From a virus: DNA of 26,754 bases. The notes beneath the pieces were generated by a model. That model had not been told where the DNA came from, did not search any database, and saw nothing but the letters and a program-made list of their open reading frames with translations. Made by a program: the position numbers and the translations under genes. Shown here in pieces: positions 2,289 through 12,461 of the stretch. The stretch is from positions 1 through 26,754 of the IMG/VR virus record IMGVR_UViG_3300030389_003827, one strand, 5' to 3'. Positions within the stretch are counted from its first letter, which is position 1. Every line of letters starts with the position of its first letter.

Positions 2289-2852
2289 ATGAAACTAACA
2301 GTAGTTAGAACTCAGTTTGGCACTGATGCAACCAATGGTATTTTATTGATTGATGGTGTATTCGAGTGTTTTACTTTAGAGGACCAATATCAAGCAGTAA
2401 AAGTTATGCACGAGACTTGCATACCTGAGGGAACATATAATATTGAGTTTAGAAAAACAGGTGGCTTTCACGCCAAGTATTCAGAAAGATATAAGAATGC
2501 ACACTATGGAATGTTACATATACAAGATGTACCTAATTTTACATACATTTTGATTCACACTGGGAATACAGACGAACACACATCAGGTTGTCTTATAGTT
2601 GGAGAAACACAACAGGATTTAGAAGTATCTAAGGATGGGTTTATTGGTAGCAGCACTGTGGCGTACAAAAAAATGTATTCAAAAGTAGCTAATCAATTAT
2701 TACAAGGTAAGAAAGTAACTATAGAATACACAACTATAAATAAATTACTTGACAAACCTGCAGAGAAATCAGATGTATATGAAAAGCTACAAGAGATAAG
2801 CGGTGAAATTAAAGTTTTAAATGCTAAACTAAGTGGAAAGAGTATTTTATAA
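2289..2852 (+). CDS. DUF5675-family protein, L,D-transpeptidase-like, probable lysis or cell-wall enzyme
   Basis: This 187-residue protein carries the DUF5675 hallmark around residues 90-105: His90-Thr-Gly-Asn-Thr, then Thr-Ser-Gly-Cys101-Leu-Ile-Val-Gly. The layout (early 'FTLED', then 'IPEGTYNI', then the His...Gly-Cys block) matches phage members of that family. Its His/Cys arrangement recalls the catalytic His and Cys of YkuD-type L,D-transpeptidases. After about residue 150 there is a charged helical extension (KSDVYEKLQEISGEIKVLNAKL) that could be a coiled coil for oligomerisation or virion attachment. It sits between two holin-like genes, and its last base is shared with the next start, so a lysis role in the periplasm or cell wall is plausible. 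Enzymatic activity is inferred and not visible in sequence beyond the His/Cys motif. Confidence 0.75.
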   Translation: MKLTVVRTQFGTDATNGILLIDGVFECFTLEDQYQAVKVMHETCIPEGTYNIEFRKTGGFHAKYSERYKNAHYGMLHIQDVPNFTYILIHTGNTDEHTSGCLIVGETQQDLEVSKDGFIGSSTVAYKKMYSKVANQLLQGKKVTIEYTTINKLLDKPAEKSDVYEKLQEISGEIKVLNAKLSGKSIL

Positions 2853-3142
2853 TGTCAGATTTATTTGAAAAAAATAAAAGACAAAGAAACCAAGACGGCA
2901 CATTTAAGAAAGATGTGAGGTGGACACCTTGGAATGACGCATGGAGTTATAAAATGAGTGAAGAACTCAAAGATATGCTTGAGCGAACCGTATGGACCTT
3001 TATTGAGGCTTTCATCGGTGCTTTAGTTGTTGCTCCCCTTGCAGGTGTTGACGCAGATTCGTTGCAGTTGGCAGCTATCGCAGGTGGTGGCGCAGCTTTA
3101 GCAGTTGTAAAAGCATATGCTAAAAAACAAATTAGCAAGTAA
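2852..3142 (+). CDS. Holin-like protein
   Basis: A 96-residue protein whose ATG shares one base with the preceding stop (TAATG). Residues 1-45 are polar and charged. The rest holds two hydrophobic segments (about 46-64, WTFIEAFIGALVVAPLAGV, and 70-87, LQLAAIAGGGAALAVVKAY) and ends in a basic tail (KKQISK). The phrases 'EAFIGALVVAPL' and 'AAIAGGGAALAVVKA' resemble the r1t-type actinobacteriophage holins. It is the last gene of the rightward block and is followed by a hairpin. It would form inner-membrane pores that release or activate the wall-degrading enzyme. Confidence 0.75.
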   Translation: MSDLFEKNKRQRNQDGTFKKDVRWTPWNDAWSYKMSEELKDMLERTVWTFIEAFIGALVVAPLAGVDADSLQLAAIAGGGAALAVVKAYAKKQISK

Positions 3143-3408: not shown

Positions 3409-3469
3409 CTTCAAATAACTCAAAACAATATTCGCAATGATAATCATATCCAGGTACAGGATGACTCAT
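3380..3469 (-). CDS. 29-residue Cys/His microprotein, possible zinc knuckle
   Basis: The ATG (3469-3467) shares one base with the stop of the Rad52-like gene in a TAATG junction, the same coupling used across this cluster. The peptide contains C-x2-C-x8-H-x-C (CEYC...HNC), a plausible single zinc site. It overlaps the start of the next leftward gene by about 29 bases in a different frame. Short length makes it tentative. The junction type and the spaced Cys/His residues are the support. Confidence 0.45.
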   Translation of the reverse strand: MSHPVPGYDYHCEYCFELFEDGPHNCKNQ

Positions 3470-4272
3470 TAGAAAGGAGCCTCTCCAGGTTTAATCTCAT
3501 CAAGAGACCTAGCCTTTACTTCAATACCTTGCTCTTTTAATAATGTTTGTGTCCTTTCATTGTATGCTTCTTTAAATCCTGATGGTAAATTTTTATCATT
3601 TTTGTACCAGGACTTAGCATATTTATATTGACCTTTTTGGTCTGCATTTTCACAATCTTTACCTTTTGAACATCTAAAATCTGCAGAAGCAGGATTAGAT
3701 TTATCTTCAGGCATAATTATATTTACATAACCAAAGCATGGTTTCGGACAAAACAAACTATCTTCTGATGAGGAAGAGCTTGTCGTAGTCGAATTTGAAG
3801 GAGCCACAACGACTTTCTCAACTACGACTTTGCTCTCGTTTTCTGTAACGGTGGTTTTACCACTGGGTGTAGAACGTTCAAATTCTTCCTCAGTTACATC
3901 ACCGCTCCAAAGTTCAACACCCAACCCGAATCTCATACAAGCCCTTTTAAAGGAATCTGATTCTGCGTCCTTGAGTAATGAACCATCATTAATTGATTTA
4001 TTATCTAGCTTGAATGTGTCAACATCTCCAACGCCTTGAAAAGTTCCATGACCTTCAAGGGTAATGGTTCCAATAGCACCGACAATTCTTTTGACACCTT
4101 TATGGTCTCCATAAACTGGCTCACAAGACCATGAATATTTTATGTTACTATCTCTTAATCTTTCTACATATCTACTGTGTGAAACGTATTTTCCAAACTT
4201 ACCTTTTGGTGCGTCCTTTACATATTCTTTTGGAAATGGTTTCGTTAATTTATTAAATGCTTCTTTAGTCAT
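3469..4272 (-). CDS. Rad52/Sak-like single-strand annealing protein
   Basis: A 267-residue protein that would anneal complementary single strands during phage recombination and replication. The N-terminal ~125 residues follow the Rad52/22 pattern: 'YVSHSRYVERL' (29-39), the beta-hairpin region 'GAIGTITLEGHGTFQGVGD' (65-83) and the signature helix LKDAESDSFKRACMRFGLG (100-118), closely like the 'DAETDALKRA' motif of the family. A low-complexity Ser/Thr/Val linker (about 131-171) leads to a C-terminal part with four Cys (175, 179, 201, 207) that may bind zinc, and a short tail ending GEAPF. Single-strand annealing proteins often end in a partner-binding tail, possibly for SSB. Its neighbours are a phosphoesterase and small genes in the same direction. 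Confidence 0.8.
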   Translation of the reverse strand: MTKEAFNKLTKPFPKEYVKDAPKGKFGKYVSHSRYVERLRDSNIKYSWSCEPVYGDHKGVKRIVGAIGTITLEGHGTFQGVGDVDTFKLDNKSINDGSLLKDAESDSFKRACMRFGLGVELWSGDVTEEEFERSTPSGKTTVTENESKVVVEKVVVAPSNSTTTSSSSSEDSLFCPKPCFGYVNIIMPEDKSNPASADFRCSKGKDCENADQKGQYKYAKSWYKNDKNLPSGFKEAYNERTQTLLKEQGIEVKARSLDEIKPGEAPF

Positions 4273-5756: not shown

Positions 5757-5762
5757 AGTATA
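5757..5762 (-). promoter_or_regulatory. Candidate -10 box (TATACT) of a leaderless promoter
   Basis: On the - strand TATACT lies seven bases upstream of the ATG at 5749, so transcription would begin at or next to the start codon. The 74-residue gene has no ribosome-binding site, which fits. No convincing -35 hexamer is present. Leaderless mRNAs are frequent in Actinobacteria. Confidence 0.3.
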
Positions 5763-5782
5763 GTCGAAAAAAAGGGGATAGT

Positions 5783-5816
5783 AGAAAAAATAAAAAAAAT
5801 TCACAACGAATGTTGT
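5783..5816 (-). terminator. Possible intrinsic terminator of the leftward unit upstream
   Basis: In leftward orientation ACAAC (5816-5812), loop ATTC and GTTGT (5807-5803) form a short hairpin followed by GA and a T-rich run (5800-5783, seven T, A, six T). It lies between the 95-residue gene ending at 5886 and the next leftward gene. The stem is only five pairs, so strength is uncertain. Two more hairpins lie just upstream. Confidence 0.4.
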
Positions 5817-5835
5817 TTTCGAAAAATGTAAGTAA

Positions 5836-5881
5836 GGAGGTCGAGGTGTTGACCTCCCTACTATCCTAGTGGTTCGCTAGG
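5836..5881 (-). terminator. Two tandem hairpins after a leftward gene
   Basis: GGAGGTC (5836-5842) pairs perfectly with GACCTCC (5851-5857), and CCTAG (5865-5869) pairs with CTAGG (5877-5881). Both lie within 50 bases after the stop codon at 5886. Together with the T-rich hairpin at 5783-5816 they may end or stabilise the 3' end of the leftward transcript. Confidence 0.4.
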
Positions 5882-5885
5882 TGAA

Positions 5886-6173
5886 TTAGTTATAATAAAT
5901 AAACTCTGCTGACGAACCATCTTGTTGTTGGTATGTCCAATCACCAACTTTATGTGTATCAAACTGAGTGTTGGGGTGGTTATCTTCTAACACTTCTAGT
6001 TCCCCAATCTCGTCTTCTACCCACCATCCACACTCATTGAGTCTGATATTATGCATGTTTGAACCACCATTGGAAGTATATTCAGTAATCTTTTCTACTG
6101 CTTCCTCAGGACTTCCTGCCTCAACGTATGCTTCACTTTCTTGTGTGTACTTTAAGTAATATAACTTACTCAT
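5886..6173 (-). CDS. 95-residue acidic hypothetical protein
   Basis: The start at 6173 is chosen because AAAGGAG stands just upstream. Upstream in-frame ATGs to 6215 have no ribosome-binding site. The N-terminus (KLYYLKYTQESEAYVEAGSPEEAVEKI) has the pattern of small phage proteins in which a beta-strand is followed by an 'EA.S.EEA..KI' helix. A Trp pair (GWW) and many Glu/Asp follow, then a C-terminus FIYYN. It is the first gene after the four-repeat region at 6247-6504. No function can be assigned. Confidence 0.65.
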   Translation of the reverse strand: MSKLYYLKYTQESEAYVEAGSPEEAVEKITEYTSNGGSNMHNIRLNECGWWVEDEIGELEVLEDNHPNTQFDTHKVGDWTYQQQDGSSAEFIYYN

Positions 6174-6246
6174 GTATTCTCCTTTCTTGTAACCTTTGCT
6201 TTCCATTCCGCGCATTACAATGCCTCACACCTCCGCTCCTTAGCAC

Positions 6247-6504
6247 AAAAAAACTTTATTGTGGCTAACCTTTGCTTACAACTCCTCACTTCACCTCAAC
6301 GCACCTATGCAATCCATAGCAATAAAAAAACTTTATTGTGCTTACCTATCCTTTCCAATCCCCTGCATACGGCACCTGACACCTCCAATGCTCGCCTGTC
6401 CATACCAATAAAAAAACTTAAATAAGGCTTACCTTTCCTTACCCTGCACCACCACGGTCCTCCTGTGCTTAGCTCAAAAAAACTTTAATGTGCCTTACCT
6501 TTGC
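6247..6504 (-). repeat. Four degenerate ~30-bp repeats, A7CTT...TTACCT type
   Basis: Cores of exactly A7CTT begin at 6247, 6324, 6410 and 6476, each followed after 8-11 bases by T(T/A)ACCT(T/A)T(G/C)C, ending at 6275, 6351, 6438 and 6504. Spacing is 77, 86 and 66 bases. Copy 2 is a hairpin (CAATAAA/TTTATTG) and copy 1 a partial one (TTAGC...GCTAA). The segments between are C-rich on the + strand, so the leftward RNA is G-rich and carries a GGAGG-like word between each pair of cores. This fills the gene-free stretch 6216-6560. Function unknown: protein-binding sites, a replication element or a repeated RNA module are possible. Confidence 0.6.
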
Positions 6505-6560
6505 CCTCCGCTCCGAACCCGTGTATAGCCCGCCTAACCAATCCGAGCCGATGCGTTCCA

Positions 6561-9281: not shown

Positions 9282-9393
9282 TCTTTTTCTCCTCAGGTGA
9301 ACGTAGGTCGTACGTATCTTTCTTTACCTCGTTACCAAACAAGTCCACCCATGTAACTTCAAAGTTTTCCCAATCAATATTTTTATCTTTCAT
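9274..9393 (-). CDS. 39-residue hypothetical protein
   Basis: TAATG junction with the upstream gene (stop 9395-9393, start 9393-9391) and a strong GAGAGGAGG ahead of the start. The product is charged with several aromatics (DWENFEVTWVDLFGNEV) and ends SPEEKKNV, whose GAGGAG codons act as ribosome-binding site of the following gene. It is too small for family assignment, but the coupling on both sides makes it likely real. Confidence 0.6.
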   Translation of the reverse strand: MKDKNIDWENFEVTWVDLFGNEVKKDTYDLRSPEEKKNV

Positions 9394-9671
9394 TATTCCT
9401 CCTCTCCAAAAAGCTCACCCTCAAGTAAGGCAAGTCGTTGCTCACTGTTCTCCCATTCACTGTCAGGTTTACCAACGATTTTTGCTTTATGATACTTGTT
9501 AGTTGCTTTGTCTTTGAACTTCACACTTGTTGTCTGTAAGCTCCAATCGTCATCTTCATCTAACTTCATGATTGTGGCTTGAACGCCTTCACGATTAAGT
9601 TGCTTGTCTGTAACAAACTCGTAGATTGTTGAGACTTCTTTCGTATTTTTGACTACATACTTGTAATCCAT
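9393..9671 (-). CDS. 92-residue hypothetical protein behind a structured leader
   Basis: The start at 9671 follows AAAGGAG closely. Longer in-frame starts to 9731 lack such a site and would run into the structured RNA region. The product is rich in Lys and Glu with beta-type stretches (YKYVVKNTKEVSTIYEFV, GVQATIMKL) and ends GEEE-stop, where the codons double as the next gene's ribosome-binding site. It is the first gene downstream of the ~480-nt structured region, so its expression, and that of the coupled genes after it, may be controlled by that RNA. Confidence 0.65.
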   Translation of the reverse strand: MDYKYVVKNTKEVSTIYEFVTDKQLNREGVQATIMKLDEDDDWSLQTTSVKFKDKATNKYHKAKIVGKPDSEWENSEQRLALLEGELFGEEE

Positions 9672-9685
9672 ATTGCTCCTTTCTT

Positions 9686-10167
9686 TAGCTTGTAACACAC
9701 AAACTTCGTGTATGCCTCGGTTCGTTATCATACTTTGACCAGTCTGAGCGAGAGGCTTATGTGCTACAAGCTACCCACAACCCAAGCACGAAAGAGATTA
9801 AGTACTTGGGTTATGGTTGTGAGCTATTGCTAGTCCACAGTAGGTAGCACGGAGAACGCAGGGTTGAATGAAAGGGGTATCGTTGTTTAGTACGTATACC
9901 ACGCCACGTTCTCCATGCTATCTACAACAACAGTTCGGACACAAGGTCTGCAATTAGTTTTTAGTGCCGTAGTCGGTTATGAACCGACAACCTAGCTCTT
10001 TAGTTGCTTATAGATAGCTTGTAACACATAGTAGGTTTTCCCAGTATTTATTTTATAGCGACTGGTTACAAACGTATTTTACCTATGTGCTACAAGCTAC
10101 CTACGTTCAGTCGTTAGGTCAAACAGGGCATATGTTTTAATAACTAACTCCTACTTGTAGATAGCTT
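9686..10167 (-). ncRNA. Candidate large structured RNA or 5' leader with repeated long stem-loops
   Basis: No gene fits in 9672-10178. In leftward order it holds: a long stem 10011-10036 with 10081-10103 (TAGaTAGCTTGTAaCACATAG...); a 7-bp hairpin GTCGGTT/AACCGAC (9972-9988); a 19-position stem 9840-9858 with 9907-9925; a hairpin AACCCAAG/CTTGGGTT (9779-9812) with outer arms CACAAC/GTTGTG; and a stem TAGCTTGTAACACA (9686-9699) with TGTGCTACAAGCTA (9760-9773). The first and last share the same 14-base arms. Their A-C mismatches on the + strand become G-U pairs in the - strand RNA, which points to leftward transcription. The final stem ends next to the ribosome-binding site of the gene at 9671. 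It could be a leader with regulatory switching or a stand-alone RNA of the large ornate kind known from phages (for example GOLLD or ROOL). I cannot assign a class. Confidence 0.6.
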
Positions 10168-10178
10168 ATTTGCTTTGG

Positions 10179-10568
10179 CTAAATCGAATTTACACCATGT
10201 TTTAAAAAATCTTGTATGTCACCCATGTATCTGTGTATGAACCACTTGAACAACATCTCGTCATCGTAGTTGTCAACTTCGATAATAAACGGTGCGCTCC
10301 ACCATGCATACTTGAAACGTATGTTTGAGATGTGACCGTTTTTGTCTATGTCACAAAGTATCCTGTAATCAGGACCACCACCTGCGAGTTGTAGCTCCAA
10401 TGTTTTATACACACGTATTCCGTACACGCTTGACTCAATCTCCTCAAGAGTTTCCTCCGAGTAACTTAATTCATCTTTCTCATATGCACGTAACCAATTG
10501 TGAAATGTATTCACAATGTCCTTGTACGTATCATGTGCCTCTTGTGGTATGTCTGTACCGTTAGCCAT
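10179..10568 (-). CDS. 129-residue hypothetical protein
   Basis: Starts at ATG 10568 in a TAATG junction preceded by GAGGAGGAA. An in-frame upstream ATG lies inside the previous gene and is not needed. The product is helical at first (EAHDTYKDIVNTFHNWLRAYE, LEEIESSVYGI) and then beta-rich (YRILCDIDKNGHISNIRF, PFIIEVDNYDDE), ending with a helix. The layout is that of a soluble cytoplasmic protein with no motif I recognise. It is the last gene before the structured region. Confidence 0.65.
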   Translation of the reverse strand: MANGTDIPQEAHDTYKDIVNTFHNWLRAYEKDELSYSEETLEEIESSVYGIRVYKTLELQLAGGGPDYRILCDIDKNGHISNIRFKYAWWSAPFIIEVDNYDDEMLFKWFIHRYMGDIQDFLKHGVNSI

Positions 10569-10870
10569 TATTCCTCCTCTAGTGGTTTTGGTTCTTCTGT
10601 TTCTCCATAAATCCATATAGAAGCTAAGAACTCTGTATCTATGTCTAAAGGTAATTCCCTTGAGCCTACGATAGATACTGCTGTTTCACCGTTCCAGTAT
10701 TCTTCATAGCCTAAAGTTCCATTATCAAATATAGAAGGATTAAAGAATTCCTTTAATATATTTTCATCACTAGTTTTTTCTACCCAGCTTGTTGGATAGT
10801 AATATTGCATAGTGAAATCATGTTCACCTGTCCTTTGTTTGAACTGTATCATTGTTAATTGTGTATTCAT
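10568..10870 (-). CDS. 100-residue hypothetical protein
   Basis: Coupled on both sides by TAATG junctions, with GGGAGGAA as ribosome-binding site. The product has aromatic-rich stretches (MQYYYPTSWVEKTSDENILK, LGYEEYWNGETAVSIVGS) and an acidic end (ETEEPKPLEEE-stop), the final Glu codons again being the next gene's ribosome-binding site. No family recognised. Confidence 0.65.
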   Translation of the reverse strand: MNTQLTMIQFKQRTGEHDFTMQYYYPTSWVEKTSDENILKEFFNPSIFDNGTLGYEEYWNGETAVSIVGSRELPLDIDTEFLASIWIYGETEEPKPLEEE

Positions 10871-11662: not shown

Positions 11663-11683
11663 AATTATTTGTTAGCATAAAAA

Positions 11684-11713
11684 AAACTTTACGGGCGTGA
11701 ACCCGTAAAGTTT
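11684..11713 (-). terminator. Strong intrinsic terminator, 12-bp perfect stem
   Basis: In leftward orientation AAACTTTACGGG (11713-11702), loop TTCACG and CCCGTAAAGTTT (11695-11684) form a perfect 12-bp hairpin leading into eight T (11686-11679). It begins seven bases after the stop of the -1 frame extension (11720) and about 155 bases after the zero-frame stop (11869), which favours the extension being the true end of that gene. Confidence 0.9.
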
Positions 11714-11719
11714 AATTAT

Positions 11720-12231: not shown

Positions 12232-12265
12232 TGTATACCACCTTTCATTCGTGTATGTACGCTTG

Positions 12266-12296
12266 TACATATCTCGTACTCTAGTAGAGATATGTA
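12266..12296. promoter_or_regulatory. 10-bp perfect inverted repeat upstream of a leftward gene
   Basis: TACATATCTC (12266-12275) and GAGATATGTA (12287-12296) are perfectly complementary, with an 11-base centre. Lying 35 bases before the start at 12231, it could be an operator or a leader hairpin of that gene. Confidence 0.45.
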
Positions 12297-12315
12297 TTTA
12301 TATTATGTATTTCTA

Positions 12316-12417
12316 CATAGATAATTTATTCGATGAATAGTGCGTACTCGTTCGGCACGGAAAGAGCGACTAGGCTTGTACCTAGTCGGCACGACTGAAT
12401 AATAAATTATATCTATG
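12316..12417. repeat. Nested inverted repeat with strong inner hairpin
   Basis: Outer arms CATAGATA + ATTTATT (12316-12330) pair with AATAAAT + TATCTATG (12401-12407, 12410-12417) across a two-base bulge, 15 pairs in all. Inside lies CGACTAGG (12367-12374) with CCTAGTCG (12381-12388), loop CTTGTA. TCGGCACG occurs twice within it (12352 and 12386). It could be a cruciform at an origin or a structured leader. Confidence 0.5.
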
Positions 12418-12433
12418 AATTACTGAAAGACGG

Positions 12434-12461
12434 TAGATATATATCTGTAAAGATATATCTA
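12434..12461. repeat. AT-rich hairpin
   Basis: TAGATATAT (12434-12442) pairs with ATATATCTA (12453-12461) around a ten-base loop. It directly follows the nested inverted repeat and is part of the same intergenic region. Confidence 0.4.

What the first reader, a model, noticed from the sequence alone, without database searches (positions are those of the whole stretch)
9686..10167. Large repeated stem-loop RNA candidate upstream of a leftward gene
A ~500-base gene-free stretch holds several long stems. Two of them (9686-9699 with 9760-9773, and 10015-10031 with 10083-10099) share the same arms, TAGCTTGTA-A-CACA and TGTG-C-TACAAGCTA. Each has the same single A-C mismatch on the + strand, and the second has one more (10014/10100). 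All of these become G-U wobbles in the - strand RNA, which is what a folded leftward transcript would tolerate. Further stems lie between (9840-9858 with 9907-9925; 9972-9988; 9779-9812). The last stem abuts the ribosome-binding site of the gene at 9671. This may be a new phage leader or ornate RNA.
Basis: seen in the sequence. Interest (0 to 1): 0.78.

Follow-up and report, generated by a model that had tools for sequence, protein, structure and literature searches.

The report
Shuffled RNA cassette arrays in phages
A gene-free stretch of an uncultured virus of bacteria encodes a string of folded RNA modules held by two short alternating arm sequences; the same arms recur in well over a hundred related virus fragments while the modules between them are swapped like cassettes, an RNA architecture that matches nothing in the public RNA family library.

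Summary
It matches no Rfam family. Each F can pair with the R before it (linker stem) or the R after it (insert stem); both pairings show co-variation, and the two are mutually exclusive. A second pattern scan confirmed both: 53 of 54 linkers had the predicted F with GAA before it, and 25 of 26 variant insert arms had their complement (2.8 expected). Modules recombine: four phages with near-identical flanks carry four different first inserts; seven module families occur in both positions. Arrays run from just after one gene's stop codon to just before the next gene's ribosome-binding site, but precede 28 unrelated gene families, so this is not the leader of one gene. Function is inferred: most likely a platform of exchangeable structured RNAs acting on the host (about 0.35); rivals are an intercistronic switch or an RNA-processing site.

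The parts
10157..10165 (-). R0 arm GCUAUCUAC, first element of the array, 13 nt after the stop codon (10179-10181) of the upstream gene
10105..10156 (-). Linker module L1 (class 0): AGUA/GAA internal loop, covarying stem, apical GCCCUGU
10096..10104 (-). F1 arm GUAGGUAGC; can pair with R0 (linker stem) or R1 (insert stem)
10019..10095 (-). Insert module I1 with inner stem UUGUAGCACA/UGUGUUACAA; a different insert sits here in each of L001, L003 and L122
10010..10018 (-). R1 arm GCUAUCUAU
9926..10009 (-). Linker module L2, contains the perfect hairpin GUCGGUUCAUAACCGAC (9972-9988)
9917..9925 (-). F2 arm GUAGAUAGC; homology with L001, L002 and L003 resumes exactly here (9925)
9849..9916 (-). Insert module I2, inner stem AUGGAGAACG/CGUUCUCCGU
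9840..9848 (-). R2 arm GCUACCUAC
9779..9839 (-). Linker module L3 (class 6, three-way-junction type by inspection); weak resemblance to Rfam ssNA-helicase (21 bits, cut-off 41.5)
9770..9778 (-). F3 arm GUGGGUAGC
9690..9769 (-). Insert module I3 (core CCUCUCGCUCAGACUGGUC...GAGGCAUACACGAAG shared with cluster 1), inner stem UUGUAGCACA/UGUGUUACAA
9681..9689 (-). R3, truncated final arm GCUAAAGAA, running into the ribosome-binding site (AGGAG, 9676-9680) of the gene starting at 9671
9393..9671 (-). Downstream gene (92 aa, no family match)
10179..10616 (-). Upstream co-directional gene (145 aa, no family match)

Best explanation
A modular intercistronic RNA array of an uncultured phage clade. SHOWN (about 0.95): short arms R and F alternate, R-L-F-I-R-L-F-I-R, on the coding strand between co-directional genes. 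Modules are closed by R.F stems. Each F has two competing partners, the R before it and the R after it, and both pairings show co-variation. Linkers and inserts come from a large shared repertoire and are exchanged at the arms, even between nearly identical phages. INFERRED (about 0.35): the array is a platform that lets the phage collect, swap and express structured RNA cassettes acting in trans on the host, for example as decoys, inhibitors or mimics. Because every F is complementary to every R, any module placed between two neighbouring arms is closed by a stem, so the arms work as universal adapters. The roughly 19-22 bp insert stems may serve as RNase III sites that free the cassettes or separate the flanking messages. 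Exchange is probably carried out by the phage's own single-strand annealing protein (3469-4272) acting on the short identical arms.
For: Repertoire and exchange: 313 modules fall into 152 clusters, and one linker class is followed by 18 different insert clusters. Seven of the larger clusters (1, 7, 8, 9, 13, 18, 26) occur in both positions. Window, L001, L003 and L122 share the first linker and flanking DNA at about 88-98% identity but carry four different first inserts, with homology ending at the F1 insert arm and, in L001-L003, resuming at F2. 65% of homology ends lie in the arm frames against 27% expected. Structure: all ten inner insert pairs exceed permutation, z 3.3-6.8; 25 of 26 held-out arms find their partner against 2.8 permuted; linker alignment 97.9% paired, 58 doubly changed cells against 15 shuffled, and RNAalifold predicts the same fold unaided. 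Dual pairing. Not tied to one gene: 28 downstream families. Annealing protein.
Against: No transcript data were available, so expression, processing and trans action are all unproven. The array seems to be part of an operon, with no convincing promoter or terminator of its own. Its ends sit next to the upstream stop codon and the downstream ribosome-binding site, which also suits a cis role. No module tested matches a known RNA family. CRISPR-repeat mimicry was not tested because the host is unknown.
Confidence: 0.4

Rival explanations
1. A cis-acting intercistronic switch. The F arms pair either leftwards (R0.F1, R1.F2 ...) or rightwards (F1.R1, F2.R2 ...), so a change at one end, such as a ribosome finishing the upstream gene and covering R0, can pass along the array and decide whether the last R, next to the downstream ribosome-binding site, is paired or free.
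For: Both pairings co-vary. R0 begins a median 16 nt after the upstream stop codon in 67 arrays and the last R ends a median 23 nt before the downstream start in 52. The two global states differ by only a median 5.4 kcal/mol per array. 79 of the scored arrays lie between co-directional genes.
Against: 28 unrelated downstream families. Inserts change between near-identical phages while the adjacent genes stay the same. The closeness to stop and start could simply reflect tight gene packing. The rightward state is usually favoured by computed energy (B favoured in only 12 of 83 arrays).
Confidence: 0.25
2. RNA processing or protection sites: the 19-22 bp insert stems are cut by RNase III, or shield the ends, so that each cistron of the operon becomes a separate stable message, as between the early genes of phage T7. 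The modules are tolerated passengers.
For: Long, nearly perfect stems between co-directional genes; position just after a stop codon and just before a ribosome-binding site. The T7 comparison is from general knowledge.
Against: Does not explain recurring module cores, the AGUA/GAA loops or two-sided pairing of F.
Confidence: 0.2
3. A DNA-level element: the arms are recombination or replication sites, and the RNA folding is a by-product of inverted repeats.
For: Breakpoints cluster at the arms; the phage encodes an annealing protein.
Against: Pairs are kept as G-U on the coding strand; the minus strand folds far better than the plus strand; alignments show RNA-type compensation and an AGUA/GAA internal loop.
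Confidence: 0.08
4. A leader RNA specific to the gene at 9671.
For: The last stem abuts its ribosome-binding site.
Against: The same arrays precede many unrelated genes, and the module content differs among phages that carry this same gene (L001-L003).
Confidence: 0.03

Closest known systems
Bacterial interspersed mosaic elements (BIMEs / REP arrays)
   Same: Composite repeats in which regularly spaced units are present in alternating orientations (abstract of PMC2817692); intergenic mosaics with exchangeable short motifs (general knowledge).
   Different: Here the repeated units are single arms rather than whole palindromes, pairing is RNA-strand-specific with conserved G-U, modules are large structured RNAs, there are only one or two arrays per phage, and no REP transposase was sought.
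GOLLD / ROOL ornate phage-associated RNAs
   Same: Large structured non-coding RNAs (PMC12286853); association with phages from general knowledge.
   Different: No Rfam match; modular and recombining content instead of one conserved fold.
RNA anti-CRISPRs (Racrs)
   Same: Small phage-encoded RNAs that act on host defence (PMC10651486); shares only the idea of anti-host RNA.
   Different: Racrs mimic CRISPR repeats; no such mimicry was shown or tested here.
Rfam RF03070 ssNA-helicase RNA
   Same: A hairpin followed by UGUAGCAUGUAGCA resembles a linker hairpin followed by GUAGCUUGUAGCA.
   Different: 21.0 bits against a cut-off of 41.5; its model has no partner arm and no array.
Phage T7 intercistronic RNase III sites (from general knowledge)
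   Same: Long stems between co-directional early genes.
   Different: T7 sites are not arrays with dual-partner arms or exchangeable modules.

Membership tests
Any Rfam 15 family | Match at or above the family's gathering score | tested here: not met
   Window: none. 15 relatives, 130 kb: none.
RF03070 ssNA-helicase | Gathering score 41.5 bits | tested here: not met
   21.0 bits, E 0.25.
GOLLD / ROOL | Covariance model match | tested here: not met
   No hit at gathering score or at E up to 10 in the region.
BIME / REP array | Units in alternating orientation with exchangeable linkers | tested here: met
   About 92% of neighbouring arms alternate (311 of 338, counted from the strings); mosaic linkers.
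BIME / REP array | Each unit is itself a palindrome (REP) with many copies per genome | tested here: not met
   Arms are single strands R or F; arms cluster mainly in one array, sometimes two, per roughly 40-kb phage.
BIME / REP array | REP-associated tyrosine transposase | not tested
   No search for this transposase was made.
Racr RNA anti-CRISPR | Sequence or structure like a CRISPR repeat of the host | not tested
   Host unknown; no host CRISPR repeats to compare.
tRNA or tRNA-like array | ARAGORN tRNA call | tested here: not met
   None in the window or in 40 loci.
Riboswitch or leader of one gene | Constant association with one gene family | tested here: not met
   28 downstream families among 89 arrays, largest 18.

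The most novel reading that the evidence does not exclude
A new class of viral RNA element: a cassette platform with two universal adapter arms in which each F arm has two selected, mutually exclusive partners. The phage swaps dozens of structured RNA payloads through it to counter diverse host defences, an RNA equivalent of a gene-cassette array.
Probability: 0.35. Interest if true: 0.95.

Novelty: categorically new. Interest (0 to 1): 0.86.

Why it matters
It would be an exchangeable RNA cassette system in phages, with more than 150 module clusters in about a hundred arrays, most of unknown fold and function. It offers a ready library for RNA structure determination and for anti-host screens. 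The dual-partner arms would also be a natural example of long-range competing helices kept by selection, testable by simple reporter and probing experiments.

Tried and rejected
Rfam search at gathering and relaxed thresholds gave no family; microRNA hits are chance hairpins. tRNA arrays were suspected because of T-loop-like GGUUGAAUUCC and anticodon-like loops; ARAGORN found none. DNA search of 50,697 phage records with the region or with one insert found no relative. A pattern scan of 85k bacterial and archaeal genomes gave one contig, phage-like, in a MAG. A first permutation test of linker pairing mixed both strands and was weak; restricting to the coding strand resolved it. Extension of the rightward F.R helix beyond the arms showed no co-variation, and two of four variable positions on that side were not significant, so the rightward pairing of the outer arm is less strongly supported than the leftward one. 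The leftward core test is biased because R was picked partly by pairing; the extension, AGUA/GAA and one search tests are not. Literature searches found no description of such arrays in the held library; the paper I tried for the ssNA-helicase motif is not held.

Full report
CHECK OF THE OBSERVATION. The minus strand of 9672-10178 folds at -179.4 kcal/mol, z -7.96 against dinucleotide shuffles, and the plus strand at z -4.32. The region does not match any Rfam family at the gathering score; the best relaxed match, ssNA-helicase RNA, scores 21.0 bits against a cut-off of 41.5. No tRNA is present. The neighbouring genes are phage genes of an uncultured clade: terminase, portal, Rad52/Erf-like annealing protein, exonuclease, ParB-like protein. 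The terminase is about 26-27% identical to the best-ranked cultured-phage hits listed.

A WIDESPREAD FAMILY. The 15-mer GTAGCTTGTAGCACA, the 5' arm of two of the stems, was found in 120 stretches of viral contigs before the scan stopped at its limit. Nearly every copy has the partner TGTGTTACAAGCTA downstream on the same strand, mostly 40-130 nt away. The loci belong mostly to one diverse phage clade: 102 of 124 carry a homolog of a window protein, and the terminase is present in 50, the closest listed 53-60% identical. Of about 85,000 bacterial and archaeal genomes one had the paired pattern with a 45-75 nt loop, on a phage-like contig.

ANATOMY. The arrays consist of two arms, F (GUAGGUAGC) and R (GCUAUCUAY), that alternate with variable modules between them: R-L-F-I-R-L-F-I-R. 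About 92% of neighbouring arms alternate (311 of 338, counted from the strings), and the arms cluster mainly in one array, sometimes two, per genome. In the window there are three linkers and three inserts: R0 10157-10165, F1 10096-10104, R1 10010-10018, F2 9917-9925, R2 9840-9848, F3 9770-9778, and a truncated R3 at 9681-9689 that runs into the ribosome-binding site. Arrays lie between co-directional genes in 79 scored cases. R0 begins a median 16 nt after the upstream stop codon and the last R ends a median 23 nt before the next start codon.

RNA-LEVEL SELECTION. Insert stems: without using pairing to choose the arms, all ten inner pairs are kept above permutation, z 3.3-6.8, with many fully compensated variants such as TTGATAGACA/TGTCTATCAA and TCGGATTACG/CGTAATCCGA. 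Linker stems: the bases beyond the R.F helix continue to pair (1.18 against 0.70 +/- 0.08 permuted, 0 of 5000), and linkers with GUA at the end of the five bases after R (nearly all AGUA) have GAA before F in 18 of 21 cases against 3 of 95 in the rest, the pattern of a loop-E-like internal loop (that it forms such a loop is inference). At all four variable arm positions F and the preceding R co-vary (p 7e-10 to 5e-4, 3 A-C mismatches over 160 arm pairs). With the following R, two of four positions co-vary (p 9e-4 and 2e-4), with 13 A-C mismatches over 166 arm pairs. Shared ancestry inflates such tests to an unknown degree. F therefore has two partners that cannot be paired at once. Folding with either set enforced gives energies that differ by a median of 5.4 kcal/mol, usually in favour of the insert stems.

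HELD-OUT TEST. A second scan used only R plus NAGTARGAG, with no information on F or the insert. Of 54 distinct linkers, 19 of them at loci already known, 53 had F downstream, and all 53 had GAA directly before it. On 39 aligned linkers the proposed fold pairs 97.9% of cells, with 58 doubly changed cells against 15 in shuffles, and RNAalifold returns the same 16 pairs unaided. In that alignment the R.F helix itself varies only one-sidedly, partly because R was fixed by the search pattern. Of 26 new inserts without the original 15-mer, 25 had the complementary arm followed by an R-like arm; permuted arms gave 2.8 on average and 7 at most.

MODULE EXCHANGE. 313 modules form 152 clusters, 55 with more than one member; the commonest linker class is followed by 18 different insert clusters, and seven of the larger clusters occur in both linker and insert positions. 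The window and three close relatives (flanking DNA mostly 88-98% identical) share the first linker but have four different first inserts; homology stops at the F1 insert arm and, in L001, L002 and L003, resumes at F2, 9925. Over all arrays 65% of homology ends fall in the arm frames against 27% expected; part of this excess is built in, because conserved arms extend alignments. Downstream genes fall into 28 families among 89 arrays.

HOW IT MOST LIKELY WORKS. The anatomy, the two-sided pairing and the exchange are shown. That the modules act in trans on the host is inferred from their rapid replacement between near-identical phages, their lack of tie to any gene, and their recurring folded cores. 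The logic of the arms follows from the anatomy: as every F complements every R, any module between two neighbours is closed by a stem. The phage's annealing protein is a plausible agent of exchange at such short identities; this is inference. A cis switch and an RNA-processing site remain serious rivals, and no result here separates them cleanly from the trans reading.

COMPARISON AND NOVELTY. BIMEs share the alternating, mosaic layout but not the single-arm, strand-specific RNA pairing or the large structured modules. GOLLD and ROOL are ornate RNAs with their own fixed folds and do not match. Racrs share only the general idea of anti-host RNA. No description of this architecture was found in the held literature, which covers only open-licence papers. 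It is therefore rated categorically new in architecture, with function open.

Noticed in passing
window 6210-6560, minus strand: Another gene-free stretch with about four diverged copies of a unit, 67-86 bases or more apart, containing AATAAAGTTTTTTT between short inverted arms.
   Followed up: no
window 12241-12460 and 5761-5900, minus strand: Two further gene-free stretches fold far better than shuffles (z about -8.8 and -8.0 in the 160-nt scan), without R/F arms.
   Followed up: no
window about 11670-11715: A strong terminator-like hairpin, TTTACGGGTTCACGCCCGTAAAG followed by a run of T on the minus strand.
   Followed up: no
L098:1691-1839, L083:4844-4938, L059:2788-2886 and others: Several inserts carry T-loop-like hairpins such as GUAGGUUGAAUUCCUACC or UAGGUUCGAAUCCUA, although ARAGORN, run on L098 among 40 loci, calls no tRNA.
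   Followed up: partly
window 9690-9769 and L026:452-577: The recurrent module CCUCUCGCUYAGA...GUAUGAUAACGAACCGAGGCAUACACGAAG could form an H-type pseudoknot (CCUC/GAGG with GUAUG/CAUAC); not tested.
   Followed up: no
window 9762-9813: Weak resemblance of the third linker plus F arm to Rfam ssNA-helicase RNA; that family may be a fragment of a similar array.
   Followed up: partly
L125 (PAEL01000115.1): A contig binned into a gammaproteobacterial MAG carries one array and a phage-like gene layout; host assignment is uncertain.
   Followed up: no
window 2289-3142: DUF5675 protein followed by a holin-like protein, a probable lysis pair.
   Followed up: no
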